Origin: an uncultured Flavobacteriaceae bacterium
GTDB taxonomy: Bacteria; Bacteroidota; Bacteroidia; Flavobacteriales; Flavobacteriaceae
Direction: 5' to 3'
Assembly: GCA_947497245.1 (NCBI GenBank)
Contig: CANMFO010000006.1
Span: 1 to 64,000 of the forward strand
Length of the DNA stretch: 64,000 nucleotides
The position numbers were made by a program, and so were the translations under genes. Below the pieces are notes generated by a model, which saw only the letters and a program-made list of their open reading frames with translations, searched no databases and was not told the DNA's origin. Positions 43,605-59,866 of this stretch are shown piece after piece; within the stretch, counting starts at the first letter, position 1, and each line of letters begins with the position of its first letter.

Positions 43605-46235
43605 ATGTACAAAATGACCACCTTGGCACTACTCTGCCTTCTTTTTCTTTCCTGTAAGAATGACGGAACGTCAACTTCCGATGAAATCGAAAAATCCATA
43701 ACCTTTAACTTGCCCGATGGGTTTGAACTGGAGGATCTTTACCATCCCAGTGAACATGAACAGGGTTCGTGGGTGGCCTTGGCCCAGGGGGATAATGGTC
43801 AAATTTTTGCGTGTGACCAGTATGGAAAGATCTATAGTTTCATGGCCCCGGAGGAGGGCAGTGTTTTGGACCCCGGGGACGTAAAGCCCCTTGACCTGGG
43901 AATCGGGGAGGCGCATGGACTGCTATGGGCCTTTAACAGCCTGTATGTGGCCGTCAACAAACGCTGGGACGATGATGTACCCGATGAATCGGAAAACGGA
44001 AGTGGCATCTATCGAATTACCGATTCGGATGGCAATGGGGAATTGGACAAGGTTCAGATGCTTCTAAAACTGGAAGGTGCAGGGGAACACGGCCCGCACA
44101 GTTTTGTGCTTTCTCCCGATGGGACCGAAATCTACTTTATCGCGGGCAACCACACCTTGGTCCCAGAAAAACTCCTAACGAACAGCCATCTCCCCACCAA
44201 TTGGGGTGAGGACAACCTTTTTGAACCCTATTTGGACGCTCGCGGGCATGCCAACGACATCAAGGCCCCGGGCGGGTGGATCTCAAAGTTCAATCCGGAT
44301 GGCAGCCAGTGGGAACTCATTTCCGCTGGATACCGGAATCCGTTCGACATGGCCTTTAACCAGGATGGCGAGCTGTTCGCCTACGATGCCGATATGGAAT
44401 GGGACATCGGAATGCCCTGGTACCGCCCAACCCGAATCTGTCATGTCACCAGCGGGAGTGAATACGGCTGGCGTACCGGATCGGGCAAATGGCCCGCCTA
44501 CTATCCCGACAACCTACCTGCCGTGCACAATCTGGAACAGGGATCGCCCACCGCGGTACTTTCCGGGGCCAAATTGAATTTTCCCGCCAAATACCAAAAC
44601 GGGCTCCTGATCATGGACTGGAGTTTTGGGACCGTTTATTTCATCGATCTCAAAAGAAAGGGGAGCAGTTATTCTGCGAAGAGGGAAGAGTTTCTATCCG
44701 GCACGCCCCTGCCCCTTACCGATATGATCGCCGGTACGGATGGCGCACTCTATTTCGCCACCGGAGGACGGAGGATCGATTCGCATTTGTATCGTTTGCG
44801 CTATACGGGCACCGATATGGGAGCGGCCCAATCGGAAACCGATGAGACCACGGCAGCGCTCCGAAGCCTGCGCCATACCCTTGAAAAATACCATACCGAA
44901 GTCTCCAATGCCGCCGTACCGCTGGCCTGGGAAAATCTAGATCATGAAGACCGGTTTATCCGCTATGCCGCGCGACTCGCGCTGGAGCACCAAGCTGTTG
45001 CCGAATGGAAGGCGCGGTTCTTTAAGGAAACCAATGTCCAAAAACTTATTGAGGCCGGTATCGCCCTGGCCCATCAGGGAGACAAGGACCTTCAGGGAAA
45101 AATATTGGATAAGTTCCAAGCCTTGAAATTGGAGCAGTTGTCCACCGAACAGCAAATTGCCCTTTTGCGGAACTATTCGCTGCTGTTCATTCGGATGGGC
45201 GCACCCGATGCGGCACACGCCCGCTCAGTCGCCAAAAAATTAAGTGCTTATTTTCCCCATGCGAACAATGCCGTGACCCGGGAATTGGGACAACTGTTGC
45301 TCTTTTTAAAGTCCGATGGCATTACCGGGGCTTTGGTCGAACAATTGGAGCGGCACACTAGGGAAAAGACCATCGCGGAAGGTGTTGAAATGCTTTCCGA
45401 GGAAGCAACCCTTCGCAGTGAACAGTACGGTCCGCTCATCCGCGACGTAATTGCCAAAATGCCCCCCAGCGAATCCATATTTTATGGAATGCTGTTGAGC
45501 CATGCCCAAGAGGGGTGGACGCGGGAGCTTCGCGAAAAATACTTCCTGTGGTTCTACGATGTCTTGGCAGCCAAGGGTGGAATGAGTTTTAAGGCCTATA
45601 TGGAAAATGTCCGCCAACAGGCCATGGCCCATGTACCCGCTGCCGAAAAGGAGGAGTTCCAGGAAATATCGGGGGTATACGACCCCTCGACCGCGGTGGC
45701 CGATTTACCTCAGCCCATTGGACCGGGAAAAAACTATTCGAACCGGGAAATTGGCCAATTGCTGGGTGCCGGGGAACACGGAAATTTTGCCGATGGGGAA
45801 CGGGCCTACCAAGCGGCCATGTGCGTTATGTGCCATAGGATGCAGGGCAACGGGGGGGCCGCCGGACCCGACCTGACCCAGGCCCACACCAAATTCAACA
45901 GTTGGGAGATGCGCTTTACCGTTTTGAGCCCAAACGATGAAATCTCGGACCAATATGCCAATATGCTGTTCCATCTAAAGGATGGACGTAAAATGGCGGG
46001 GCGCGTAAAATCCGAGGAAGGCGACAGCATTGTGCTGATGCCCAACCCCTTTAACGAGACCTATACCGTACAACTGGCCAAAGCCAATGTTGAAAAGCAA
46101 GAACTTTCACCCATTTCCCCTATGCCCTCGGGTCTCCTGAACCGGTTGAACGAACAGGAGATCCGAGACTTGTTCGCTTATTTGCAGGCGGGCGGGGATG
46201 CGGACAGTCCGGTGTATTCGGAAGAAGGGGAATAG
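43605..46235 (+). CDS. Lipoprotein with sugar-dehydrogenase-like propeller and C-terminal cytochrome c domain
   Basis: An 876-residue lipoprotein (signal ending FLSC, about residue 17). Residues 35-400 form a soluble-glucose-dehydrogenase/PVC-type beta-propeller (GHANDIKAPGG, ISAGYRNPFDMAFN, DMEWDIGMPWYRPTR, TDMIAGTDGALYFAT). Residues 420-680 are helical, HEAT-like. A monohaem domain follows with Cys740, Cys743 and His744 (CVMCH) and the downstream GAAGPDLT; the axial Met is probably in ISPMPSG. It would oxidise a substrate at the cell envelope and pass electrons to a cytochrome. Known relatives occur in Planctomycetes-Verrucomicrobia and Bacteroidota. Substrate unknown. Confidence 0.85.
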   Translation: MYKMTTLALLCLLFLSCKNDGTSTSDEIEKSITFNLPDGFELEDLYHPSEHEQGSWVALAQGDNGQIFACDQYGKIYSFMAPEEGSVLDPGDVKPLDLGIGEAHGLLWAFNSLYVAVNKRWDDDVPDESENGSGIYRITDSDGNGELDKVQMLLKLEGAGEHGPHSFVLSPDGTEIYFIAGNHTLVPEKLLTNSHLPTNWGEDNLFEPYLDARGHANDIKAPGGWISKFNPDGSQWELISAGYRNPFDMAFNQDGELFAYDADMEWDIGMPWYRPTRICHVTSGSEYGWRTGSGKWPAYYPDNLPAVHNLEQGSPTAVLSGAKLNFPAKYQNGLLIMDWSFGTVYFIDLKRKGSSYSAKREEFLSGTPLPLTDMIAGTDGALYFATGGRRIDSHLYRLRYTGTDMGAAQSETDETTAALRSLRHTLEKYHTEVSNAAVPLAWENLDHEDRFIRYAARLALEHQAVAEWKARFFKETNVQKLIEAGIALAHQGDKDLQGKILDKFQALKLEQLSTEQQIALLRNYSLLFIRMGAPDAAHARSVAKKLSAYFPHANNAVTRELGQLLLFLKSDGITGALVEQLERHTREKTIAEGVEMLSEEATLRSEQYGPLIRDVIAKMPPSESIFYGMLLSHAQEGWTRELREKYFLWFYDVLAAKGGMSFKAYMENVRQQAMAHVPAAEKEEFQEISGVYDPSTAVADLPQPIGPGKNYSNREIGQLLGAGEHGNFADGERAYQAAMCVMCHRMQGNGGAAGPDLTQAHTKFNSWEMRFTVLSPNDEISDQYANMLFHLKDGRKMAGRVKSEEGDSIVLMPNPFNETYTVQLAKANVEKQELSPISPMPSGLLNRLNEQEIRDLFAYLQAGGDADSPVYSEEGE

Positions 46236-50776: not shown

Positions 50777-50910
50777 TACGGCAACATGTCCTATCGGTGG
50801 CGCTGGGCAAAAACGCCCCGCTGTCGCCCAAGGTAAGTTTTCGGAAGATAGCGCATTTCCGACGCTTTATAAATCCGTACATTTAAGGAAGTAACCAATT
50901 CGAGGATTGT

Positions 50911-51579
50911 TTGAACAAGTTGACCAAATATTGGTTTCTGGAAGGGTTCGACCTATTTGCCAAATTGGGTAGGCCCACCATGATGCGCATGTGCGAGATC
51001 CTGGAGATGGAGCATCTGGACAAGGGTACGGCCATTTCGTTGGGCGATAGGGACAAAAAGAGCATTTTTTTCTTAAAAAAGGGGGCCGTTAAAATCTCCG
51101 ATGCCAAAAGCGATACGGTAAAATACGTCGTAAAAAAGGGCAATATCTTTGGCGAACTGGCCCTGTACGACCAACAGGCCGCAGCCGAGGAACAGGCCTT
51201 TGCCCTGGAAGACTCCATTATCTGCCATATCGGGGCGGATATGATGGAGAAGCTCATGGAAAAGCACCGCTCGCTTAAGAACGCCGTACTCAAGATATAT
51301 GGCCTACGGATAAAAAAACTGGAACGTCGGCTGCAAGACCTGCTCTATAAGGACAGCACCCGGCGCATTGCCGATTTCATTACGGATTATGTCCACGAAT
51401 TTGGAGAGGAAAACAAGAATGGAAGGATCGCTAAAAACCTATTGTCCCAAAAGGATATTGCCAATCTGACCAACACTTCCAGACAAACGGTAAGCAATAC
51501 GTTAAGTAATCTCCGAAAAGCGCGACTGATCGATTACAGTGCCCAATATATTTCCATACCAAAAAAAACAGTTCCATGA
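50911..51579 (+). CDS. Crp/Fnr-family transcription regulator
   Basis: A 222-residue regulator with an N-terminal cNMP-binding-type beta-roll (about residues 28-135) and a C-terminal winged HTH (LSQKDIANLTNTSRQTVSNT, about 178-200). The cAMP contact region reads FGELALYDQQAAAEEQAF: the Glu is kept but the Arg-Ser pair of CRP is missing, so cAMP binding in the CRP manner is doubtful. There is no N-terminal FNR Cys cluster. The start is a TTG at 50911; an in-frame stop at 50884 leaves no ATG before residue 24. A near -7 element (TAcaTTTa) is at 50878-50885. It overlaps the next gene by 4 bp. Confidence 0.88.
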   Translation: MNKLTKYWFLEGFDLFAKLGRPTMMRMCEILEMEHLDKGTAISLGDRDKKSIFFLKKGAVKISDAKSDTVKYVVKKGNIFGELALYDQQAAAEEQAFALEDSIICHIGADMMEKLMEKHRSLKNAVLKIYGLRIKKLERRLQDLLYKDSTRRIADFITDYVHEFGEENKNGRIAKNLLSQKDIANLTNTSRQTVSNTLSNLRKARLIDYSAQYISIPKKTVP

Positions 51580-51863
51580 AAAATTTTTTAAAACGGCTTT
51601 TCACTTCAAAGGAAGCCGATGTTTTCGATACCGCGCCTAAAGGGGTATGTCCCAATTGCTGGGGCGATCAGGAATATGGCAATGTGGTCCGGGAGAAATA
51701 TAAGGACGCCCAGATCGGCGTGAACAACCGGGAAAGCCAATATGCCTTTATCCAAGATTTTATGGTTACCCATCTGGATGGGATCAAACTAAAGAGTTCC
51801 GTGCACGGCACGGAATGTCCCACCTGTAAAGTGGTGTATCCAAATGAAAGCGGAAATCAATAG
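51576..51863 (+). CDS. Small double-CxxC protein of unknown function
   Basis: A 95-residue soluble protein beginning inside the stop codon of the Crp-type gene (ATGA overlap). It has two CxxC pairs, Cys25/Cys28 (CPNCWGD) and Cys81/Cys84 (CPTCKVV), 52 residues apart, which could bind one zinc ion or an Fe-S cluster, or serve as redox dithiols. The middle is helical and charged. The overlap implies coupled translation and a shared job with the regulator, for example as a sensor partner. I do not know a named family. Confidence 0.75.
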   Translation: MKNFLKRLFTSKEADVFDTAPKGVCPNCWGDQEYGNVVREKYKDAQIGVNNRESQYAFIQDFMVTHLDGIKLKSSVHGTECPTCKVVYPNESGNQ

Positions 51864-51946
51864 TACCAAGTCCGACCGTCTTCCCATCGGGATGGACATA
51901 ACTTCAATCGATAAAAACAATAACCCAATTTAAAACACTAAGAATC

Positions 51947-52705
51947 ATGTCAGAACAACTAGCAAAAATGACGGAACACCAATGTTCCAGCGCCCCGGCC
52001 AAATATGATGACCTCAAGGTCCTTTTCCTCAACTGCACGCTGAACAGAACTCCGGTACTGTCACATACCGAGGGGCTTATCGCCGTCGCACAGCGGGTTT
52101 TTGAAGCCAATGGCGCCAGCACCAAGGTCATACGTCCTGTGGATTATACCATTCCCGCGGGCTTGGGGCTCGATATGTCCCAGACCCCGGAATGGGAAAA
52201 GGACGATTGGCCCATGCTCCAAAAAGAAGTGGACGCCTGCGATATTTTGGTCCTCTGTACGTCGGTATGGCTAGGTGAAAAGTCTTCGGTCTGCAATAGG
52301 GTCCTAGAGCGGATGTACGGTTACACGCACCAATTCAACGAAAAGGGACAGTACCGCGATTATGGAAAAGTAGGTGCGACCTTGATCACGGGAAACGAGG
52401 ATGGGGTAAAACATTGCGCCATGAACATTCTCTTCTCCCTTTCCCATATCGGCTATACGGTCCCTCCCCAAGCAGATGCGGGCTGGATGGGAGAGGCTGG
52501 GCCCGGGCCTTCTTATCGGGATGAAGGTTCCGGCGGACCGGAAAACGACTTCACCAATAGAAATACGACCTTCCTTGCCTGGAACTGTATGCACCTGGCC
52601 CGTATGTTGAAGGACGCCGGGGGGGTGCCGGCACATGGCAATCTCCCCGATGAATGGAAAGCGGGCTGCAGGGCCGGTTTTGACAGTCCCGAACACAAAC
52701 GATAG
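51947..52705 (+). CDS. Flavodoxin-family (NADPH-dependent FMN reductase-like) protein
   Basis: A 252-residue flavodoxin-fold protein. The first strand and loop VLFLNCTLNRTP replaces the typical phosphate-binding loop; downstream DILVLCTSVWLGEKSSVCNRVLERM and GATLITGNEDGVKHC are typical of the NADPH-dependent FMN reductase/NAD(P)H dehydrogenase group. The C-terminal third, rich in Gly and aromatic residues, is longer than in the smallest members. It starts 83 bp after the CxxC gene and ends 5 bp before the next gene. An electron-transfer role in this cluster is an inference. Confidence 0.85.
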   Translation: MSEQLAKMTEHQCSSAPAKYDDLKVLFLNCTLNRTPVLSHTEGLIAVAQRVFEANGASTKVIRPVDYTIPAGLGLDMSQTPEWEKDDWPMLQKEVDACDILVLCTSVWLGEKSSVCNRVLERMYGYTHQFNEKGQYRDYGKVGATLITGNEDGVKHCAMNILFSLSHIGYTVPPQADAGWMGEAGPGPSYRDEGSGGPENDFTNRNTTFLAWNCMHLARMLKDAGGVPAHGNLPDEWKAGCRAGFDSPEHKR

Positions 52706-52710
52706 GCGGT

Positions 52711-53457
52711 ATGGAAAAAATGATGCACCTGGCGGCCCAATATCTGGCCGCCGCCGGAATAAGTTTCGTCCAAAAAGAAGCGGACGACAGCCATACCAAC
52801 CTAGGGTTTTCGACCTTGGACGGAAGTATGTACACATGGCCGTTGAACGTGGCCGGAGACGTGTTGGCCCTTAGCTACAATACCTTTGGCCTGGAATGGC
52901 GCAGCCACGGTTCTACCACTTCCTTCAAGCTCGACGGCAGCACACACGGTGAAATCCTGGAATGGATTCAGCAAAGGGTTGCCGACGCTAGGTTGGACAA
53001 ACCCTTTAGCTATAAGTTCCACTACGACCTGCCCTATACGATCGCCGATGGTTTTACCTTTAAGTTATTGGACACCGATAGGCTCAAGGAACTGATGCAT
53101 CTCAGAATCTTGGGCCAACTGGCCCTTGAGGCTTTTTTGAAACAGGAGCAACTGGTTTCCGAAATTAGGGTCTGGCCGCACCATTTCGACACTGGGGCCT
53201 ATGCCCCGTTAAAGGACAGGCCAGAACGTGCGGTCGGTCTGGGGCTTGCCATCCCCGACACTTTGGTGAACGATCACTACTTCTATATAAGTGGCTATAA
53301 CGGCCATGAGGGGATGGACACTTCCGGTTTTGGAAAACTGGAGCACGGTACTTGGCACAACAATGGGTTCAAAGGTGCTGTTCTGCCCGCGACGGGAACG
53401 GATCAAAATACGGTGGTCGCCTTTTTGTCCGAGGCGTATTCCAACTATAAAAACTAA
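52711..53457 (+). CDS. Conserved hypothetical protein of the Rieske-ThDP cluster
   Basis: A 248-residue soluble protein with no signal peptide. It has aromatic-rich segments: NVAGDVLALSYNTFGLEW, the central YKFHYDLPYT, RVWPHHFDTG and HYFYISGYNGHEGMD. The WPHHFD motif is reminiscent of DUF5996-type proteins, but I am not certain of that family. Histidines and acidic residues in the second half could bind a metal. It lies 5 bp after the flavodoxin-like gene and 9 bp before the fusion enzyme, so its role is tied to them. Confidence 0.7.
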   Translation: MEKMMHLAAQYLAAAGISFVQKEADDSHTNLGFSTLDGSMYTWPLNVAGDVLALSYNTFGLEWRSHGSTTSFKLDGSTHGEILEWIQQRVADARLDKPFSYKFHYDLPYTIADGFTFKLLDTDRLKELMHLRILGQLALEAFLKQEQLVSEIRVWPHHFDTGAYAPLKDRPERAVGLGLAIPDTLVNDHYFYISGYNGHEGMDTSGFGKLEHGTWHNNGFKGAVLPATGTDQNTVVAFLSEAYSNYKN

Positions 53458-53466
53458 CACCATTCT

Positions 53467-55422
53467 ATGGCTTCAACAAAAAAAACGACCTGGCACAAGG
53501 TCCTGGACCATAAAAAAGATCTTCCCGAAGGCAGGGTCAAAACGGTAACCGTCAACCACAAGGGTATTTGCCTGACCCATTTTGAAGGCAAATTTTCCGC
53601 CTTGGACAACAAATGTCCCCATCAGGGCGGTCCCTTGGGAGAAGGATCCATCGAAAACGGACTGTTGCGATGCCCATGGCATGGGTGGGATTTTCACCCT
53701 TGCACCGGGCTACCTCCCGGCGGTTTTGACGATGGGGTGGAAACCTTCCCCGTCAAAACGGAAGCCGACGCCATCTATGTAGGTATGGAAGCGGAAGCTC
53801 CGCACGAGCCGACAGTTTCCGATATCATGGTCGAGACCATGATCAACTGGGGCGTGACCAAGGTTTTCGGCATGGTAGGGCATTCCAATCTCGGTTTTGC
53901 CGATGCGATGAAGCGTCAGGAGCAAAAAGGAAACCTCAACTTCTATGGTATCCGGCATGAGGGTGCCGCGGCTTTCGCGGCCTCCGCCTATGGAAAACTG
54001 ACCGGTAAACCCGCCGCTTGTTTTACCATTGCGGGACCTGGGGCCACCAATTTATACACCGGCATGTGGGACGCCAAGGTGGACCGGGCCCCTTTTCTGG
54101 CATTGACCGGGCAGGTGGCCACCCAAGTAGTGGGGACAGGCAACTTTCAGGAAGTTGATCTGGTGCAGGCCTTCAATACGGTGGCCGAATTCAACCAACG
54201 GGTACAAAGCGATAGCCGGCATGCCGAATTGATGTCCCTTGCCGTAAAGCACGCCATTTTAAAACGGGACGTCTCGCATTTGACCTTTCCCGACGAGGTA
54301 CAGGAACGCCGGGCCAAGCCGGGTGCCAAGGCAAAGTCTCCTGTCAATAGAATCACCCCCTTGGAGATTGCACCGCCCACCGAAATGTCCGACAGGGCCA
54401 TTGCCCTGATCAAAAAATCGAAACGACCTTTGATCGTCATGGGACACGGTGCGCGGGCGCATAAAAAAGCCGTTGTAGCCTTTGCCGAAAGTTTGAATGC
54501 CGCAGTGGTCACTACTTTTAAGGGCAAAGGGCTCATTGCCGACAATCATCCGTTGGGCTGTGGGGTCTTGGGAAGAAGTGGAACACCCATCGCCTCCTGG
54601 TTCATGAACGAAGCCGATCTACTGATCGTACTTGGGGCCTCTTTTTCCAACCATACCGGAATTACGCCAAAGAAACCCACGATCCAAGTGGATTTCGATC
54701 CATTGGCCTTGAGCAAATTCCACCAGGTGGATGTTGCGGTCTGGGGCGAGATATCGCGTACCCTGGAAATCTTTTCGGGAGCGTTGAAGGGAAAAACGGA
54801 TGCGATCGACCAAAGAGGGGAAATCGCATCGCGTTGGGCCATTTGGAAAGCGGAAAAGGAAAAGCGCCTGACGGAGACCTCGGAAAAAGGGTTGAGCTCA
54901 GTAGCGGTCTTTGAAGCGATGAACCGCTTGGCACCGAAAAATGCGGTGATGTGTGTGGATGTAGGGAACAACGCCTATTCCTTCGGACGTTATTTCGAAC
55001 CGGATCAACAGGACTTTTTAATGTCCGGATATTTGGGTTCCATCGGATTTGCCCTACCCGCCGCCATGGGTGCCTGGGCAGCGGTGGGGAGTTCACGTCC
55101 GGTCATCGCTGTGGCCGGAGATGGTGGCCTTTGTCAATATTTGGCCGAAATCACCACCTTGGTGAAGTACAATATGCCTGTAAAACTGATTGTCCTCAAC
55201 AACCATGAGCTTGGAAAAATTTCCAAGGAGCAACGGGCCGGTGAATTTGATGTTTGGCAGACGTCCCTGTCCAACCCGAACTTTTCGGAATATGCCATCT
55301 CCTGTGGTGCCTGGGGGAAACGGGTAACCGAAGAAAGCGACCTGGAAGTGGGGATGAAGCAATTGTTCGAGCAGCCCAAGGCCGGACTTTTGGAGATCAT
55401 CACCGATGTGGACCTGATTTAA
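53467..55422 (+). CDS. Rieske [2Fe-2S]-ThDP-dependent enzyme fusion (pyruvate oxidase/acetolactate synthase-like)
   Basis: A 651-residue two-part protein. Residues 1-105 are a Rieske ferredoxin domain with ligands Cys50-x-His52 and Cys69-x2-His72. Residues 115-651 are a full thiamine-diphosphate enzyme: PYR domain with catalytic Glu165 in GIRHEGAAAFAAS, central domain around 290-440 (KRPLIVMGHGARAH, DLLIVLGASFS), and PP domain with GDGGLCQ starting near residue 551 and NN 25-28 residues later. It resembles pyruvate oxidase, acetolactate synthase and glyoxylate carboligase. The Rieske domain could pass electrons from a decarboxylated intermediate. Substrate unknown. Junctions with neighbours are 9 and 16 bp. 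Confidence 0.9.
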   Translation: MASTKKTTWHKVLDHKKDLPEGRVKTVTVNHKGICLTHFEGKFSALDNKCPHQGGPLGEGSIENGLLRCPWHGWDFHPCTGLPPGGFDDGVETFPVKTEADAIYVGMEAEAPHEPTVSDIMVETMINWGVTKVFGMVGHSNLGFADAMKRQEQKGNLNFYGIRHEGAAAFAASAYGKLTGKPAACFTIAGPGATNLYTGMWDAKVDRAPFLALTGQVATQVVGTGNFQEVDLVQAFNTVAEFNQRVQSDSRHAELMSLAVKHAILKRDVSHLTFPDEVQERRAKPGAKAKSPVNRITPLEIAPPTEMSDRAIALIKKSKRPLIVMGHGARAHKKAVVAFAESLNAAVVTTFKGKGLIADNHPLGCGVLGRSGTPIASWFMNEADLLIVLGASFSNHTGITPKKPTIQVDFDPLALSKFHQVDVAVWGEISRTLEIFSGALKGKTDAIDQRGEIASRWAIWKAEKEKRLTETSEKGLSSVAVFEAMNRLAPKNAVMCVDVGNNAYSFGRYFEPDQQDFLMSGYLGSIGFALPAAMGAWAAVGSSRPVIAVAGDGGLCQYLAEITTLVKYNMPVKLIVLNNHELGKISKEQRAGEFDVWQTSLSNPNFSEYAISCGAWGKRVTEESDLEVGMKQLFEQPKAGLLEIITDVDLI

Positions 55423-55438
55423 GTTCAAACTTTTGACC

Positions 55439-56686
55439 ATGCTACAATCGTTCAGCATTATTTTTTCGATAGCGGCCTTTTACAGCTTTATCAACTATAA
55501 ATGGCTCAAGTTACCAGCCACCATAGGCTTGATGTTGATGAGCCTGGCCACGGTCATCCTGATCACGTTCTGTAAGGATCTCTTCCCCCAATTCTATCGC
55601 TTCTTCTGCGATATCGTACTCCATTCGGATTTCAAGACCTTGCTCCTTGACGGTATCTTGAGCTTCCTGCTTTTTGCGGGTGCACTGCATGTCAATATCG
55701 ATGCCCTGGCCAGGGAAAAATGGTCGGTACTTTTGTTCGCTACCCTGGGGGTCCTGATCTCAACTGCCCTGGTCGGGGCATTGGTTTTTGCAGCGGCGCA
55801 ATGGGCAGGTGTCGCCCTCCCTTTTTTGCATGCGATGCTCTTCGGGGCATTGATTTCCCCGACCGACCCCATTGCCGTGCTGGCCATCCTAAAAAAAACG
55901 TCCATCGCCAAAAGTCTGCAGGTCAAGATAGAAGGGGAATCGCTTTTCAATGATGGTATCGGAGTTGTGGTCTTTGCCGGAATATTGATTTTGGGCGATA
56001 TGGGAGGCCATCCGACAGAAAGCTCCCTGGGCGTTGAAATAGGAAGGTTGTTTTTGGAAGAGGCCGTCGGCGGCATCGCCTATGGGGCCCTACTGGGTTT
56101 TGTGGGATACCATAGTATCAAATCGGTAAGGGACAACCCCCAATTGGCCGTTATGATCAGCCTCGCTTTGGTCATGGGCGGTTACTCCCTGGCATCGCTT
56201 ATCCATGTATCCGGTCCTTTGGCGATGGTCGTATCGGGAATGCTGATCGGCAATAAGTTCAATATCGAATCGAACCGGGGACCCGCAAGAAAATTGCTCA
56301 ACGCGCTATGGGAAGTTTTGGACGAGGTGTTCAACGGCATCTTATTTGTCCTCATCGGACTGGCCATCCATCTTTTAAAATTCGATTTGCACTATCTGTA
56401 TTTGGGCCTTTTGTCCATCCTGGCCGTACTGTTGGCCCGCTTTGTTTCCGTTCTTCTACCTTATGCCCTGTTGAAGCATACCGAGGACCATCCGATCAAG
56501 ACCGTTGCCATTTTGACCTGGGGCGGGCTGCGTGGCGGAATCTCCATTGCCCTGGCACTGACGCTTGCCGATACCACCTCCTCGGAAGCGATTTTGTACA
56601 TCACCTATACGGTGGTGATCTTCTCCATAATCGTCCAGGGGCTCAGCATTGGGAAATTGGTCCAGAAACTATATCCAAACCCATAA
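55439..56686 (+). CDS. CPA1-family Na+(K+)/H+ antiporter
   Basis: A 415-residue membrane protein with about 12 helices. Ion-binding motifs of NhaP/CPA1 are present: ISPTDPIAVLAIL and GESLFNDGIGVVVF, where the Asn-Asp pair is the electroneutral exchange signature. The conserved Arg segment WGGLRGGISIALAL is near the C-terminus. No C-terminal RCK or cNMP domain. It starts at an ATG 16 bp after the fusion enzyme. In the cluster it may link ion balance to the oxidation, but this is inference. Confidence 0.92.
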   Translation: MLQSFSIIFSIAAFYSFINYKWLKLPATIGLMLMSLATVILITFCKDLFPQFYRFFCDIVLHSDFKTLLLDGILSFLLFAGALHVNIDALAREKWSVLLFATLGVLISTALVGALVFAAAQWAGVALPFLHAMLFGALISPTDPIAVLAILKKTSIAKSLQVKIEGESLFNDGIGVVVFAGILILGDMGGHPTESSLGVEIGRLFLEEAVGGIAYGALLGFVGYHSIKSVRDNPQLAVMISLALVMGGYSLASLIHVSGPLAMVVSGMLIGNKFNIESNRGPARKLLNALWEVLDEVFNGILFVLIGLAIHLLKFDLHYLYLGLLSILAVLLARFVSVLLPYALLKHTEDHPIKTVAILTWGGLRGGISIALALTLADTTSSEAILYITYTVVIFSIIVQGLSIGKLVQKLYPNP

Positions 56687-56693
56687 ATACACC

Positions 56694-57332
56694 ATGGCCA
56701 GATCGGACAAAGAATCGAAAAAGAGGGATAGGGAAAAAGATCGGTTGTTGATGGAGGACCTGGGAATTGACAAGGAAGCACTGAAATCCCTAAAGAAAAA
56801 ACTGGCCAAAATTGCTCCAAGGCCCGAACGTGGTGTCGAGACCTTGTTTCGCTTGGTCTCCAAGAACCAATACACCCTGAATACGATGATCGATAGAAAA
56901 TCGAACATCCTTATTTCGGTAAATGCCCTGATTCTTTCCATTGTCCTTGGGACAGTACTGACCCAGCTGGATGAGGACCCCCATTTGCTCGTTCCGACCA
57001 TACTAATGTTGACGACCAACCTGATTTCCATAGGCTTTGCCATTTTTGCAACACGCCCGGAACAGAGACATGGCGATGCTGCTTCCGGCAACATTATGTT
57101 CTATGGAAACTTTGAGGAAATGGAGGAAGATCGTTACCTTAATCAGCTCATGGGCTTGATGGACCAAGGGGACGAACTTTATAAGACCATTGCGAAGGAC
57201 ACTTTTCATCTCGGAAAGGTCATTTCCAGGAAGTTCAGGCTCCTCCGCATTTCGTTCCATATTTTTCTGATCGGTATCGTCCTATCGGTCGTGGCCTTTG
57301 TGCTTTGCCATCTGATGTTCGGAACTTCCTAG
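56694..57332 (+). CDS. PycTM-like (DUF5706) membrane protein
   Basis: A 212-residue protein. Residues 1-65 are soluble and highly charged. Then comes the PycTM pattern: YTLNTMIDRKSNILISVNALILSIVL-like segment (about 60-90), a second helix (about 92-115) ending FAIFATRPE, the soluble FYGNFEEMEEDRY, and the final helix LRISFHIFLIGIVLSVVAFVL. This domain (Pycsar effector TM, DUF5706) is the membrane effector in cyclic pyrimidine antiphage systems; many chromosomal copies have no known role. No cyclase gene is beside it. The ATG at 56694 is 7 bp after the antiporter. Its 3' end overlaps the convergent small gene by 51 bp. Confidence 0.82.
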   Translation: MARSDKESKKRDREKDRLLMEDLGIDKEALKSLKKKLAKIAPRPERGVETLFRLVSKNQYTLNTMIDRKSNILISVNALILSIVLGTVLTQLDEDPHLLVPTILMLTTNLISIGFAIFATRPEQRHGDAASGNIMFYGNFEEMEEDRYLNQLMGLMDQGDELYKTIAKDTFHLGKVISRKFRLLRISFHIFLIGIVLSVVAFVLCHLMFGTS

Positions 57333-57563
57333 CTGTCTTTCCCTTGGGGCCCTTCTTTTCCTGAGCGCACTAAAAAAAATCGATCCGATCAACAGTAGAT
57401 TCACCGCGTGCCAGTGGTACAGGGCAACATGAACCAATTCTTCATTGGGCGCTCCAGTTTCGCCAAAATCTTCCGCCAGTATGGCCATAAGGAGATAGAC
57501 CACAGCATCCAAGAGCAGTATTCCCATCAACAAACAGCAGTTCTGTAACTTGAAGTTTTCCAT
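57282..57563 (-). CDS. Small two-helix membrane protein
   Basis: A 93-residue protein with two hydrophobic helices (about residues 9-29 and 50-66) and a basic C-terminal tail. The ATG follows the stop of the upstream fusion gene directly (TAAATG), which supports it as real and translationally coupled. Its last 17 codons overlap the end of the PycTM-like gene on the other strand. Family unknown. Confidence 0.65.
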   Translation of the reverse strand: MENFKLQNCCLLMGILLLDAVVYLLMAILAEDFGETGAPNEELVHVALYHWHAVNLLLIGSIFFSALRKRRAPRERQLGSSEHQMAKHKGHDR

Positions 57564-59648
57564 TTACTCCTGTGTTATTTTACGTATCCGATGGTTGGCC
57601 GTATCCGCCACGTAGAGGTTTCCCTGTGCGTCTACCGAAAGCGCGTACGGATAATTGAATTGTGCCAGGTCGACCGAGCCATCCTCATTTCCATTCATGC
57701 CCCCGGCATAGGTCGTGACCGTACCGTCGGGAGTGACCTTGCGTATTTTGTGGTTTCCCTCGTCCGCGACATAGCTATTTCCCTGGGTGTCCATCCCTAG
57801 GCCACGGGGATATCGAAACTCGGCGGCACCCCCAACACCATCGGTATCTCCTTCCCGACGTCCGGCCAGGGAACCAGCCTCGCCATTTGGCGCGATCAAA
57901 TAAATACGATGGCTGTTGGAATCGACCACGTATAGCGCCCCCTCATGATTTACGGCAACTCCCGATGGACCCGAAAACATGATCTGATTTCCGATCCGGG
58001 TCACTGTTCCGTCCGGGGTCACCTTCCGTATGGCCAGATTCTTGGTATCCGCCACATAGACATTTCCCTCTAAATCAACCGCCACGCCACGGGGGAAATT
58101 GAACTGGGCCTCAGTTCCCACTCCATCGGCTGAACCCATGGTACTTCCCGCCAAGGTGGTCACCATCCCTTCTGGGCTTATTTTCCGAACCCTATGGTTG
58201 TTGGCATCGGCCACATACACCTGACCCTGTCGATCTACCGCCACCCCATAGGGCGCATCGAACTGTGCGGTGGTCCCCATCCCATCGGCAAAGCCCTTGG
58301 TACTTCCGGCAAAAGTTCCTACGGTACCATCCGGGGCTATTATCCGTATTTGATGGTTCCCCGAATCCGCGACATAGACGTTCCCTTGGCCATCGACAGC
58401 GGTACCCGTGGGGTAGGCGAATTCGGCATTTTTCCCAATTCCGTCGGAACTGCCCACGGTACTTCCGGCCAAAGTGCTGACCCTGGTCTCGGAAAGAACG
58501 TAGGCAAATTCTGGACCTTCCAATTCGGTGCCCCCAATAACGACCTTTATAGTGCCAGAATAGGCCTGCGCTGGCACTTCCGCTTTGATCTGCCCATGCT
58601 GTACCTGGAGCACCTCCCCTTCCTTTCCATTGAAGAAAACCCCCACACTGTCCACTTCCGTCCCGAAGTTCGCTCCCTCAACGGTGACCACGGTATTCTT
58701 CGGTCCGTTGAGCGGACTTACCGCATTCAGCACTGGGACGGGGATCGGTTCTTCCTGCTGGGGATTTTCTTGGACCGGATCAGGGGCGGTCGCCGCTCCA
58801 TCATCCCTGTTGCAGCTAAAAGTCAGTAAAGCGATAAGCAACAGACTTATTCCTTTATTGATCGGTTTACGACCACTGGATTTATGGCCTTCTTTTTCCT
58901 TTTGCTTGTTCAGGTCCTTAAAGGAGAGCATTTGGAGCACTTTCGCTGAAGCTCCATAGTAAAAACCGGTTTGGTGCCCATAGTTTTTGGGATTCTCAAA
59001 GGTGCCAAAAAGGATGTCGAAAATGGGCAGGTCCGAATAATTGTGCTTATGGATTCCCTTGGCATGGTGCACGGTATGGCTCTCCGGGCGTTGAATGATG
59101 TAGCCCAGCCATCGCGGGGTGTTGATGTTCGCATGCTGGAACATTCCCAGGAAATTGGTCACCAAGAGGGTTACCGTGATCGCTTGGGGGGACAGCCCTA
59201 CGAGGAGCGCAAAGCAAAGGCTCCCGAGAACGGTCCAGCCGATCATGTCCAAGGGACTGAAATAGAACGCCCCATAGGTATCCAAACGCTCGGCGCTATG
59301 GTGCATTTGGTGAAAGGCACGCCATAGGAAGTTGGAGGTATGCAGGGCCCTATGCCATACGTACACGCCAAATTCGTACAACAATACGCCCACAGCGCCC
59401 CCGCCCAGGGCACCCAATCCCGTGAGGTCGAAAACCCGGTAGGCTTCCAAATAGGGATCGGTGAACAAGGGGAGATAGGAGGATAGATAGAAGAAAAACG
59501 CAAAGGCCGTCAATCCCCGAATTTTCCAAAACTTAATCTTGGGAAGTTGTCTTGCGGGAAACAGCGCCTCCCAAATCATGAGTACCCCATATATAGCTAA
59601 AACGGATAAGGATACTGGGTCCAATAAAATTTCCAATGGTGTTGGCAT
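57564..59648 (-). CDS. Fatty acid hydroxylase/sterol desaturase fused to an IPT/TIG-NHL lipoprotein
   Basis: A 694-residue protein joined from two units. Residues 1-230 are a membrane di-iron hydroxylase (sterol desaturase family) with His motifs HRALH (99-103), HQMHH (113-117) and HTVHH (191-195) and four helices. Residues 255-279 read like a complete lipoprotein signal (basic, then LLLIALLTFSC, Cys279). Residues 295-385 form an IPT/TIG domain, and 390-694 about five NHL repeats with VYVADSGNHQIRII-type units. The second half may also be made separately from Met240 (at 58931) as a surface lipoprotein. No stop is present between the parts. A frame from 59777 adds 43 residues without homology. 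Confidence 0.8.
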   Translation of the reverse strand: MPTPLEILLDPVSLSVLAIYGVLMIWEALFPARQLPKIKFWKIRGLTAFAFFFYLSSYLPLFTDPYLEAYRVFDLTGLGALGGGAVGVLLYEFGVYVWHRALHTSNFLWRAFHQMHHSAERLDTYGAFYFSPLDMIGWTVLGSLCFALLVGLSPQAITVTLLVTNFLGMFQHANINTPRWLGYIIQRPESHTVHHAKGIHKHNYSDLPIFDILFGTFENPKNYGHQTGFYYGASAKVLQMLSFKDLNKQKEKEGHKSSGRKPINKGISLLLIALLTFSCNRDDGAATAPDPVQENPQQEEPIPVPVLNAVSPLNGPKNTVVTVEGANFGTEVDSVGVFFNGKEGEVLQVQHGQIKAEVPAQAYSGTIKVVIGGTELEGPEFAYVLSETRVSTLAGSTVGSSDGIGKNAEFAYPTGTAVDGQGNVYVADSGNHQIRIIAPDGTVGTFAGSTKGFADGMGTTAQFDAPYGVAVDRQGQVYVADANNHRVRKISPEGMVTTLAGSTMGSADGVGTEAQFNFPRGVAVDLEGNVYVADTKNLAIRKVTPDGTVTRIGNQIMFSGPSGVAVNHEGALYVVDSNSHRIYLIAPNGEAGSLAGRREGDTDGVGGAAEFRYPRGLGMDTQGNSYVADEGNHKIRKVTPDGTVTTYAGGMNGNEDGSVDLAQFNYPYALSVDAQGNLYVADTANHRIRKITQE

Positions 59649-59675
59649 AACATTTGTTTTTAAAGATTTACAGGG

Positions 59676-59683
59676 CAAACATA
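59676..59683 (-). promoter_or_regulatory. -7 element of the hydroxylase-NHL gene
   Basis: TAtgTTTG on the minus strand, 28 bp upstream of the ATG at 59648. It supports that start over 59777. Confidence 0.45.
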
Positions 59684-59866
59684 GCCCGGGCGGTGCCCTG
59701 GCCGCCACCTGGGGTGTGCCATAATCTTTAAAGTTTGTTGCGCCCAAACAATTGGTCGTCAAAGGTTCTGTACACAATGCAACGGATGTTGCAAAAGCGG
59801 CGACTGAGGTTGCAGCGATGGGGTTTTCCGATTAAAGAGGATTCTTTTTTAAACAGGTTGCTATCG

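What the first reader, a model, noticed from the sequence alone, without database searches (positions are those of the whole stretch)
50911..57332. Seven-gene redox/ion cluster of unknown function
A Crp-type regulator, double-CxxC protein, flavodoxin-like protein, hypothetical, Rieske-ThDP fusion, CPA1 antiporter and PycTM-like membrane protein lie on one strand with gaps of -4, 83, 5, 9, 16 and 7 bp. ypdA (thiol redox) sits just upstream. The composition suggests a regulated oxidation of a 2-oxoacid or aldehyde linked to ion or membrane control. No described system I know has this set.
Basis: partly seen in the sequence, partly recalled or inferred. Interest (0 to 1): 0.8.

Follow-up and report, generated by a model that had tools for sequence, protein, structure and literature searches.

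The report
Regulated Rieske-linked 2-oxoacid oxidation module
Seven neighbouring bacterial genes are a local form of a recurring, apparently undescribed redox module built around a pyruvate-oxidase-like enzyme fused to an iron-sulphur domain, in which two unrelated flavin proteins replace each other and a conserved DNA motif lies upstream.

Summary
All seven genes are present as described. The grouping is not chance. The Rieske-ThDP fusion (RTH) occurs in 16 of 199 same-family genomes; each of these 16 carries exactly one of two flavin enzymes: the close flavodoxin-like form seen here (2) or a Rieske-glutamate-synthase fusion (14). Of the 183 others, 12 carry either. The two were never found together, swap in place, and need at least 5 changes on a quick RTH tree. 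The hypothetical protein is a distant DUF5996 relative whose confident model has no PDB fold match at E 0.001. A 20-bp motif (50821-50840) precedes the Crp gene or other module operons in relatives; among 17 near-matches in this genome no other strong one was intergenic. RTH's best solved match is PoxB, a pyruvate:quinone oxidoreductase, but it lacks PoxB's C-terminal tail and has Lys at a pocket Phe in 88 of 88 sequences. Best reading: a regulated Rieske/flavin electron-transfer module for oxidative decarboxylation of a 2-oxoacid. The biochemistry is inferred. Pycsar membership is not supported.

The parts
50821..50840 (+). conserved 20-bp cis motif (consensus TGTCGYCYRAAGTAASTTT), probable operator of the module's regulator
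   Evidence: Seed pattern found upstream of 16 of 18 Crp genes examined; matrix scan of 2.02 Mb gives 22 hits at score 20 or more (16 of them the training sites) against a mean of 0.25, at most 2, for 40 column-shuffled matrices; in the own genome the other six of 17 near-matches that score 17 or more lie inside ORFs, the remaining ten score lower
50878..50885 (+). TACATTTA, possible -7 element of a Bacteroidota-type promoter, about 40 bp after the motif
   Evidence: Similar box at a like position in the upstream regions of many relatives, judged by eye; the promoter type is recalled, and no perfect TTG-N17-23-TAnnTTTG match lies here
50911..51579 (+). Crp/Fnr-type regulator (TTG start)
   Evidence: cNMP_binding and HTH_Crp_2; none of 18 orthologues has Arg or Ser at the columns aligned with the cAMP-contacting Arg/Ser of E. 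coli CRP; 2-4 Cys in each, 2 here
51576..51863 (+). 95-aa double-CxxC protein (CPNCWG...CPTC)
   Evidence: No Pfam/NCBIfam family; relatives next to the flavodoxin-like or hypothetical gene in L063, L090 and L175; four Cys invariant in 7 of 7
51947..52705 (+). flavodoxin-like FMN protein, exchangeable with the Rieske-glutamate-synthase fusion
   Evidence: PF03358; 79 of 199 aligned residues identical to PDB 5mji; 85-96% protein identity among 11 loci with near-saturated four-fold sites in most pairs
52711..53457 (+). hypothetical protein, distant DUF5996 relative with invariant WPHHFD
   Evidence: 2 of 33 family members hit PF19459, best 3.6e-7; the window protein itself does not; WPHHFD invariant in 33 of 33; AlphaFold2 pLDDT 95.6; no PDB fold match at E <= 0.001
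53467..55422 (+). RTH: N-terminal Rieske [2Fe-2S] domain fused to a pyruvate-oxidase-like ThDP enzyme
   Evidence: Pfam; Rieske ligands, catalytic Glu165 and Lys584 kept in 88 of 88; PoxB first by sequence, PQO and PoxB first by fold
55439..56686 (+). CPA1-type cation/proton antiporter
   Evidence: PF00999 186.6 bits; in 45 of 81 loci around RTH
56694..57332 (+). PycTM-like membrane protein with no cyclase found beside it
   Evidence: PF18967 88.3 bits against 27.2; PADLOC PycTM 1.3e-16; next to the hypothetical gene, or one gene away, in RTH-free modules L176, L178-L181
49793..50776 (+). ypdA, bacillithiol disulfide reductase family; neighbour, membership uncertain
   Evidence: TIGR04018 480.3 bits; next to the hypothetical gene in 12 of 81 loci, all in one clade

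Best explanation
The seven genes are one local form of a Bacteroidota redox module with its own regulator. Shown: a shared upstream motif, co-inheritance, and interchange of the flavodoxin-like protein with a Rieske-glutamate-synthase fusion. Inferred: RTH works like a pyruvate:quinone oxidoreductase. It decarboxylates a 2-oxoacid (pyruvate, or one with a second anionic group that Lys584 could bind) on ThDP, and the electrons leave through its own Rieske cluster, not through a membrane-bound C-terminal tail, to an FMN protein (here the flavodoxin-like protein, elsewhere the Rieske-glutamate-synthase fusion) or, where present, to a membrane Rieske-cytochrome-b-like protein. The DUF5996-like protein acts with the flavin protein on a common metabolite. 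CPA1 and PycTM serve ion or membrane balance when the module is on. The Crp-type protein, which does not look cAMP-responsive, controls its own gene and the module through the 20-bp motif.
For: RTH only with one of the two flavin enzymes: 16 of 16, against 12 of 183 without RTH. No genome with both: 0 of 199, and 0 of 58 distinct RTH genomes, of which 43 have the fusion, 11 the close flavodoxin-like form, 4 neither. In-place swap: L080 Crp-MPE-RGLT-OMP-HYP-DUF2721-RTH-CPA1 and L081 the same with FMN; at least 5 changes forced by starred branches, 7 by parsimony (quick tree, SH-aLRT only). HYP with either flavin enzyme: 18 of 28 against 3 of 171. PoxB ranks first by sequence, PQO and PoxB by fold; catalytic Glu165, D552 and N579 in 88 of 88, the middle Gly of GDG in 86. 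RTH directly followed by c6, first gene of the membrane Rieske set, in 25 adjacent pairs over 81 loci. A malic enzyme cluster in 6 of 81 loci (one member tested). Motif: 8 of 9 matrix hits outside the training set are intergenic and upstream of module genes; in L227 sites lie before both Crp-PycTM and FMN-HYP-RTH.
Against: No enzyme, electron transfer, transcript or phenotype was measured. The substrate pocket differs from pyruvate oxidases (Lys for Phe465 of PoxB, 88 of 88), so pyruvate may be wrong, and acetolactate synthases score close behind. FAD binding was not tested. RTH-free modules exist (RGLT-HYP-PycTM), so RTH is an optional part; HYP is missing in 4 of 16 RTH genomes and on another contig in G077. 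Weaker relatives of the flavodoxin-like protein (41-56%) do co-occur with the fusion, for example in G011, G063 and G076, so the one-of-two rule holds for the close form only. The window genome shows no membrane Rieske-cytochrome gene: its two other Rieske hits look like an oxygenase and a lipoprotein. The motif matrix at the loose threshold of 13 gives 25 hits against a mean of 8.1 (at most 16) for shuffled matrices, and at 3 mismatches whole-genome hits do not exceed the reversed-pattern control. That Crp binds the motif is inferred. RTH against the flavodoxin-like form alone is not significant (p 0.1).
Confidence: 0.42

Rival explanations
1. RTH is a carboligase or acyl-transfer enzyme (acetolactate-synthase-like), and its Rieske domain is a redox sensor or structural switch, not an electron exit.
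For: Acetolactate synthases score close behind pyruvate oxidases in sequence and fold (in one search they rank second); Lys584 replaces a pyruvate-oxidase Phe in 88 of 88, and Ser replaces Ala467 of PoxB in 86 of 88.
Against: PoxB ranks first, PQO then PoxB; Glu588, aligned with PoxB Glu469, is kept in 88 of 88; the partners are flavin and Rieske proteins, which points to electron transfer.
Confidence: 0.22
2. The cluster is a stress or phage-defence island of Pycsar kind: PycTM is a membrane effector and the enzymes are accessory.
For: PycTM matches Pycsar effector models, and the Crp-type protein weakly matches the PycTIR model (3.7e-07); patchy distribution, RTH in 11 of 395 phylum genomes, this one included; PycTM sits in RTH-free modules too.
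Against: No cyclase among the Pfam-scanned neighbours between 43.6 and 63 kb; no PADLOC hit at E 0.01 for the RTH, hypothetical, flavodoxin-like, CxxC or CPA1 proteins; the flavodoxin-like protein looks strongly constrained; PycTM is in only 8 of 81 RTH loci.
Confidence: 0.08
3. The genes are several unrelated small units that travel or settle near the rpe-ypdA region together, with no shared function.
For: Order varies widely between loci; flavodoxin-like loci lie near ypdA without RTH (L170-L173).
Against: The one-of-two rule for the flavin enzymes across 199 and 58 genomes, repeated swaps, and one shared motif in front of differently assembled units.
Confidence: 0.13

Closest known systems
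Pyruvate:quinone oxidoreductase / PoxB (E. coli 3eya and 3ey9, C. glutamicum 9ev5)
   Same: Three-domain ThDP fold over residues 116-644, about 26% identity, catalytic Glu, GDG and N motifs, Glu469 equivalent
   Different: N-terminal Rieske domain; no C-terminal tail (the 572-residue PoxB chain 3ey9 continues 47 residues past the match, RTH 7); Lys for Phe465; partner flavin proteins
RosB-type flavodoxin-like enzymes (PDB 5mji, listed as BRAMP domain protein; its identity as RosB is recalled and was not confirmed by a call)
   Same: 79 of 199 aligned residues identical, shared GNEDG and PP.A.A.W.G.AG.GP.Y blocks
   Different: RosB converts FMN with glutamate in roseoflavin synthesis (passages of PMC11039241); here the gene sits with RTH and DUF5996-like genes and swaps with a Rieske-glutamate-synthase fusion
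Glutamate synthase FMN domain (PF01645)
   Same: C-terminal part of the swap partner RGLT, 288.9 bits
   Different: N-terminal Rieske domain and no glutaminase domain among the Pfam hits of RGLT; absent from this genome, where the best hit is a 34% one to residues 199-518
Pycsar (PycC cyclase plus PycTM)
   Same: PycTM transmembrane domain
   Different: No cyclase found beside it; surrounded by metabolic genes
DUF5996 (PF19459)
   Same: Two distant members of the hypothetical family hit it
   Different: The window protein itself does not hit it

Membership tests
Pyruvate oxidase / pyruvate:quinone oxidoreductase | ThDP N, M and C domains with catalytic Glu and GDG...N motif | tested here: met
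   Pfam; E165, D552, N579 in 88 of 88, middle Gly of GDG in 86; fold ranks PQO and PoxB first
Pyruvate oxidase / pyruvate:quinone oxidoreductase | Phe at the PoxB 465 / LpPOX 479 pocket position (role recalled) | tested here: not met
   Lys in 88 of 88
Pyruvate:quinone oxidoreductase | C-terminal membrane/quinone-docking tail (role recalled; title of 3eya) | tested here: not met
   RTH ends 7 residues after the match, PoxB 3ey9 47
Pyruvate oxidase / pyruvate:quinone oxidoreductase | FAD binding and quinone or O2 reduction | not testable with these tools
   No ligand modelling or assay
Pycsar defence system | PycTM-type effector | tested here: met
   PF18967 88.3 bits; PADLOC PycTM 1.3e-16
Pycsar defence system | Pyrimidine cyclase encoded beside it | tested here: not met
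   No cyclase among scanned neighbours; the rest of the genome was not searched for one
RosB (roseoflavin synthesis) | Sequence family | tested here: met
   79 of 199 residues identical to 5mji; that 5mji is RosB is recalled
RosB (roseoflavin synthesis) | FMN to amino-FMN conversion and ros cluster | not tested
   No assay; rosA and rosC were not searched for
cAMP-responsive Crp | Arg82/Ser83 cAMP contacts (recalled) | tested here: not met
   Columns hold A, S, V, E, H, P, T and E, K, T, D or a gap; no Arg at the first and no Ser at the second in 18 of 18
Fnr | Four-Cys [4Fe-4S] cluster (recalled) | tested here: not met
   2-4 Cys in 18 orthologues, 2 in the window protein

The most novel reading that the evidence does not exclude
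A glutamate/2-oxoglutarate shunt run on Rieske clusters: the exchangeable FMN proteins have relatives whose chemistry joins FMN with the glutamate/2-oxoglutarate pair (RosB with glutamate as donor; glutamate synthase), which could be why an unrelated flavodoxin can replace a glutamate-synthase fusion; RTH, with a Lys in the substrate pocket able to bind a second carboxylate, then oxidatively decarboxylates 2-oxoglutarate and sends the electrons out through its Rieske cluster. This would be a TCA-cycle bypass with a new type of 2-oxoacid oxidoreductase.
Probability: 0.14. Interest if true: 0.85.

Novelty: new variant of a known kind. Interest (0 to 1): 0.62.

Why it matters
If right, it adds an electron exit (a fused Rieske cluster) to the ThDP 2-oxoacid oxidases, gives a repeated natural swap of two unrelated flavin proteins as a direct handle on an unknown reaction, and supplies a regulator-motif pair with which the module can be switched on and studied. 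It also gives a genomic context to DUF5996-like proteins and to cyclase-free PycTM proteins.

Tried and rejected
Chance clustering: rejected by the co-occurrence counts. Recent horizontal spread of the flavodoxin-like gene as the cause of its 85-96% identity: rejected, since four-fold sites are 20-42% identical in all pairs but three close ones (61-71%). A regulon that includes succinate dehydrogenase (a motif hit before sdhC in G243): rejected, since a site scoring 20 or more is in 1 of 30 sdhC loci, next best 14.0. Other own-genome motif hits: 16 further sites with up to 3 mismatches; the six that score 17 or more lie inside ORFs, the ten below 17 were not placed. Crp palindromes of 5-bp arms: TAAAA-N8-TTTTA stood out (5 loci against a shuffle maximum of 3) and it overlaps the promoter-like box. 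The sigma-70 scan gave fewer hits than shuffles, the terminator scan 13 against 9.1 (sd 3.3). Literature: no paper with BRAMP domain or DUF5996; Rieske with pyruvate oxidase and fusion gave one unrelated listing; Rieske with FMN-binding glutamate synthase none; searches gave nothing on the module (PMC9478572 read in passages only: it treats its Rieske gene as a bc1-type one). PMC11039241, PMC6709556 and PMC10326533 were read in passages only. PMC11224242 was seen in a search listing only.

Rows dropped or merged before counts: one RTH under 600 aa (L062) was left out of the tree, and 18 of its 80 rows with neither flavin gene in the held flank were not labelled; L136 was not in the 88-sequence check; L105 Crp hits were dropped. 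For the whole-genome check I gave 48 of the 80 loci as handles with 16 genomes; L041, L081 and L086 were not held. Three of the resulting 61 genomes were counted twice under two handles (G156=G225, G176=G230, G090=G233, from identical coordinates), hence 58. G150 has its Rieske-glutamate-synthase gene in three pieces and was counted as having it; G050, which matches residues 131-535 only, was not (one search lists 22 genomes, I count 21). Of 44 genomes that match the flavodoxin-like protein at 1e-40, only the 7 at 84% or more were counted as the close form. Fisher and hypergeometric p-values ignore shared ancestry.


Full report
Observation. The genome is 5.25 Mb in 34 contigs, the window being the start of contig 6. 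Its family is Flavobacteriaceae as far as record titles tell: same-family genomes such as G120 and G102 share contig length and place with loci L034 and L035, titled Flavobacteriaceae. CPA1 most likely starts at 55439 and PycTM at 56694, which reproduce the stated gaps of 16 and 7.

How the fusion is distributed. RTH (Rieske + ThDP) was found at 67-100% identity over its whole length in 16 of 199 genomes of the family and in 11 of 395 of the phylum, this genome included in both.

Neighbourhood. ORFs of a 21-kb stretch of the window and of the 80 loci were called by a simple script, clustered and ordered. Counts of loci of 81: Rieske-glutamate-synthase fusion (RGLT, PF00355 + PF01645) 51; DUF5996-like hypothetical (HYP) 47; CPA1 45; a membrane set c6-c7-cytbR-c4, of which cytbR has a ferric-reductase-like membrane domain and a C-terminal Rieske domain, 33, 31, 35 and 36; DUF2721 protein 28; beta-barrel protein 20; Crp 19; ypdA 19; a large protein with a weak Omp85-family match below its cut-off (67.8 of 200 bits) and an N-terminal part that I read by eye as phosphoesterase-like (MPE) 12; flavodoxin-like (FMN) 11; ion-channel protein 11; PycTM 8; CxxC protein 6; malic enzyme cluster 6 (one member tested); NAD(P)H-hydrate-epimerase-like 3. 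The loci were selected by RTH, and many are cut by contig ends.

The one-of-two rule. In the family sample RGLT is in 21 of 199 genomes, the close FMN form (84% identity or more) in 7, HYP in 21. All 16 RTH genomes have exactly one of RGLT (14) and close FMN (2); of the 183 others 12 have one (7 and 5); none has both. In a second set of RTH genomes reached through handles (61 handles, 58 distinct) 43 have RGLT (G150 in pieces), 11 the close FMN form, none both, 4 neither: G220, G238 and two Shewanella, which have a 62% hit to residues 132-535 of RGLT only. The two sets share 16 genomes. Weaker FMN relatives do occur beside RGLT (G228, G229, G239 and G242; G011, G063 and G076), so the rule holds for the close form only. 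On a quick tree of 80 RTH proteins the label changes 7 times by parsimony and at least 5 times given the starred branches; 18 rows bear no label. Swaps in place are plain in L080/L081 and in L045/L049. The close FMN form is 85-96% identical between 11 loci while four-fold degenerate sites are 20-42% identical (three close pairs 61-71%), so selection, not recent transfer, keeps it alike.

The core may not need RTH. Genomes without RTH hold RGLT-HYP-PycTM runs (L176, L178, L179, L180, L181), with an NAD(P)H-hydrate-epimerase-like gene between HYP and PycTM in L176 (TIGR00197 97.3 bits against 88.6), and FMN beside HYP (L172, convergent strands) or beside the CxxC gene (L175). So RTH goes with a flavin partner, but not the reverse.

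RTH. All 88 sequences examined keep the Rieske ligands C50, H52, C69, H72, the catalytic Glu165, F227-Q228, D552, N579 and Glu588; all 88 have Lys584 where PoxB has Phe465. PoxB is first by sequence; by fold the Corynebacterium pyruvate:quinone oxidoreductase and PoxB lead, with acetolactate synthases close behind (E 1e-40 against 3.6e-39; model pLDDT 84.3, residues 217-233 under 50). No row among the 60 printed or covers both the Rieske and the ThDP part.

HYP. WPHHFD and several other residues are invariant in 33 sequences, which suggests a metal site; this is inference.

Flavodoxin-like protein. Best PDB match 5mji, E 1.2e-35, 79 of 199 aligned residues identical. I recall 5mji as RosB; no call confirmed it. 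RosB replaces the FMN C8 methyl group with an amino group, glutamate being the donor (passages of PMC11039241).

Regulation. Upstream regions of the Crp genes share TGTCGYCYRAAGTAASTTT; the seed pattern gave 16 sites, one for each of 16 of the 18 Crp genes outside L105. A matrix from these 16 sites hit 25 places in 2.02 Mb at score 13: the 16 training sites plus nine, of which eight are intergenic and upstream of Crp, RGLT, the CxxC gene or a DedA-like gene of the module, and one (L143, 13.4) is inside an ORF. Column-shuffled matrices give on average 8.1 hits at 13 and 0.25 at 20, against 25 and 22 real ones. In L227 (G026), which has FMN, one site (18.8) precedes Crp-PycTM and one (29.8; inside a 60-aa ORF call that I take as spurious) lies 190 bp before FMN-HYP-RTH-c6-c7-cytbR-c4, with CPA1 next on the same strand 206 bp later; in G102 a site precedes an unlinked MPE gene; in G077 it precedes a Crp gene on another contig. 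In the window genome the only strong intergenic site among 17 near-matches is 50821-50840. The 3-mismatch genome counts are no higher than the reversed-pattern control and that list was cut, so only high-scoring sites carry weight. The Crp protein lacks the cAMP contacts and an Fnr cluster; its signal is unknown.

Reading. The best-supported mechanism is electron transfer from a decarboxylated 2-oxoacid through the fused Rieske cluster to an FMN partner, under an autoregulated switch. The steps shown are co-inheritance, interchange, sequence conservation and the shared motif. Substrate, electron path, operon status, autoregulation, and the roles of CPA1, PycTM, CxxC and HYP are inferred.

Noticed in passing
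window 57564-59777, - strand: One 737-aa ORF joins a fatty-acid hydroxylase domain to an IPT/TIG and NHL-repeat region; an unusual fusion, or two genes read through.
   Followed up: no
window 57282-57563, - strand: A 93-aa ORF overlaps the 3' end of the PycTM gene by 51 bp on the opposite strand; no family at E 0.01.
   Followed up: no
L037 and L045-L060: ypdA and the DUF5996-like gene are directly adjacent in 12 of 81 loci, all in one 28-row clade, hinting at a bacillithiol link.
   Followed up: partly
L170-L173: In RTH-free genomes the flavodoxin-like gene still lies about 5-7 kb from ypdA.
   Followed up: partly
G150 C1:1694880-1696470: The Rieske-glutamate-synthase gene is in three overlapping pieces, apparently broken or mis-assembled.
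   Followed up: no
L034 12084-14415 and other loci: A conserved membrane set (c6, c7, Rieske-cytochrome-b-like, c4 with an IDPKCYFGVMKPG motif), the Rieske member in 35 of 81 loci; c4 and c7 of L034 have no Pfam family at E 0.1.
   Followed up: partly
window 43605-46235, + strand: 876-aa cytochrome-c-domain protein whose cluster is in 5 of 81 loci, the window included.
   Followed up: no
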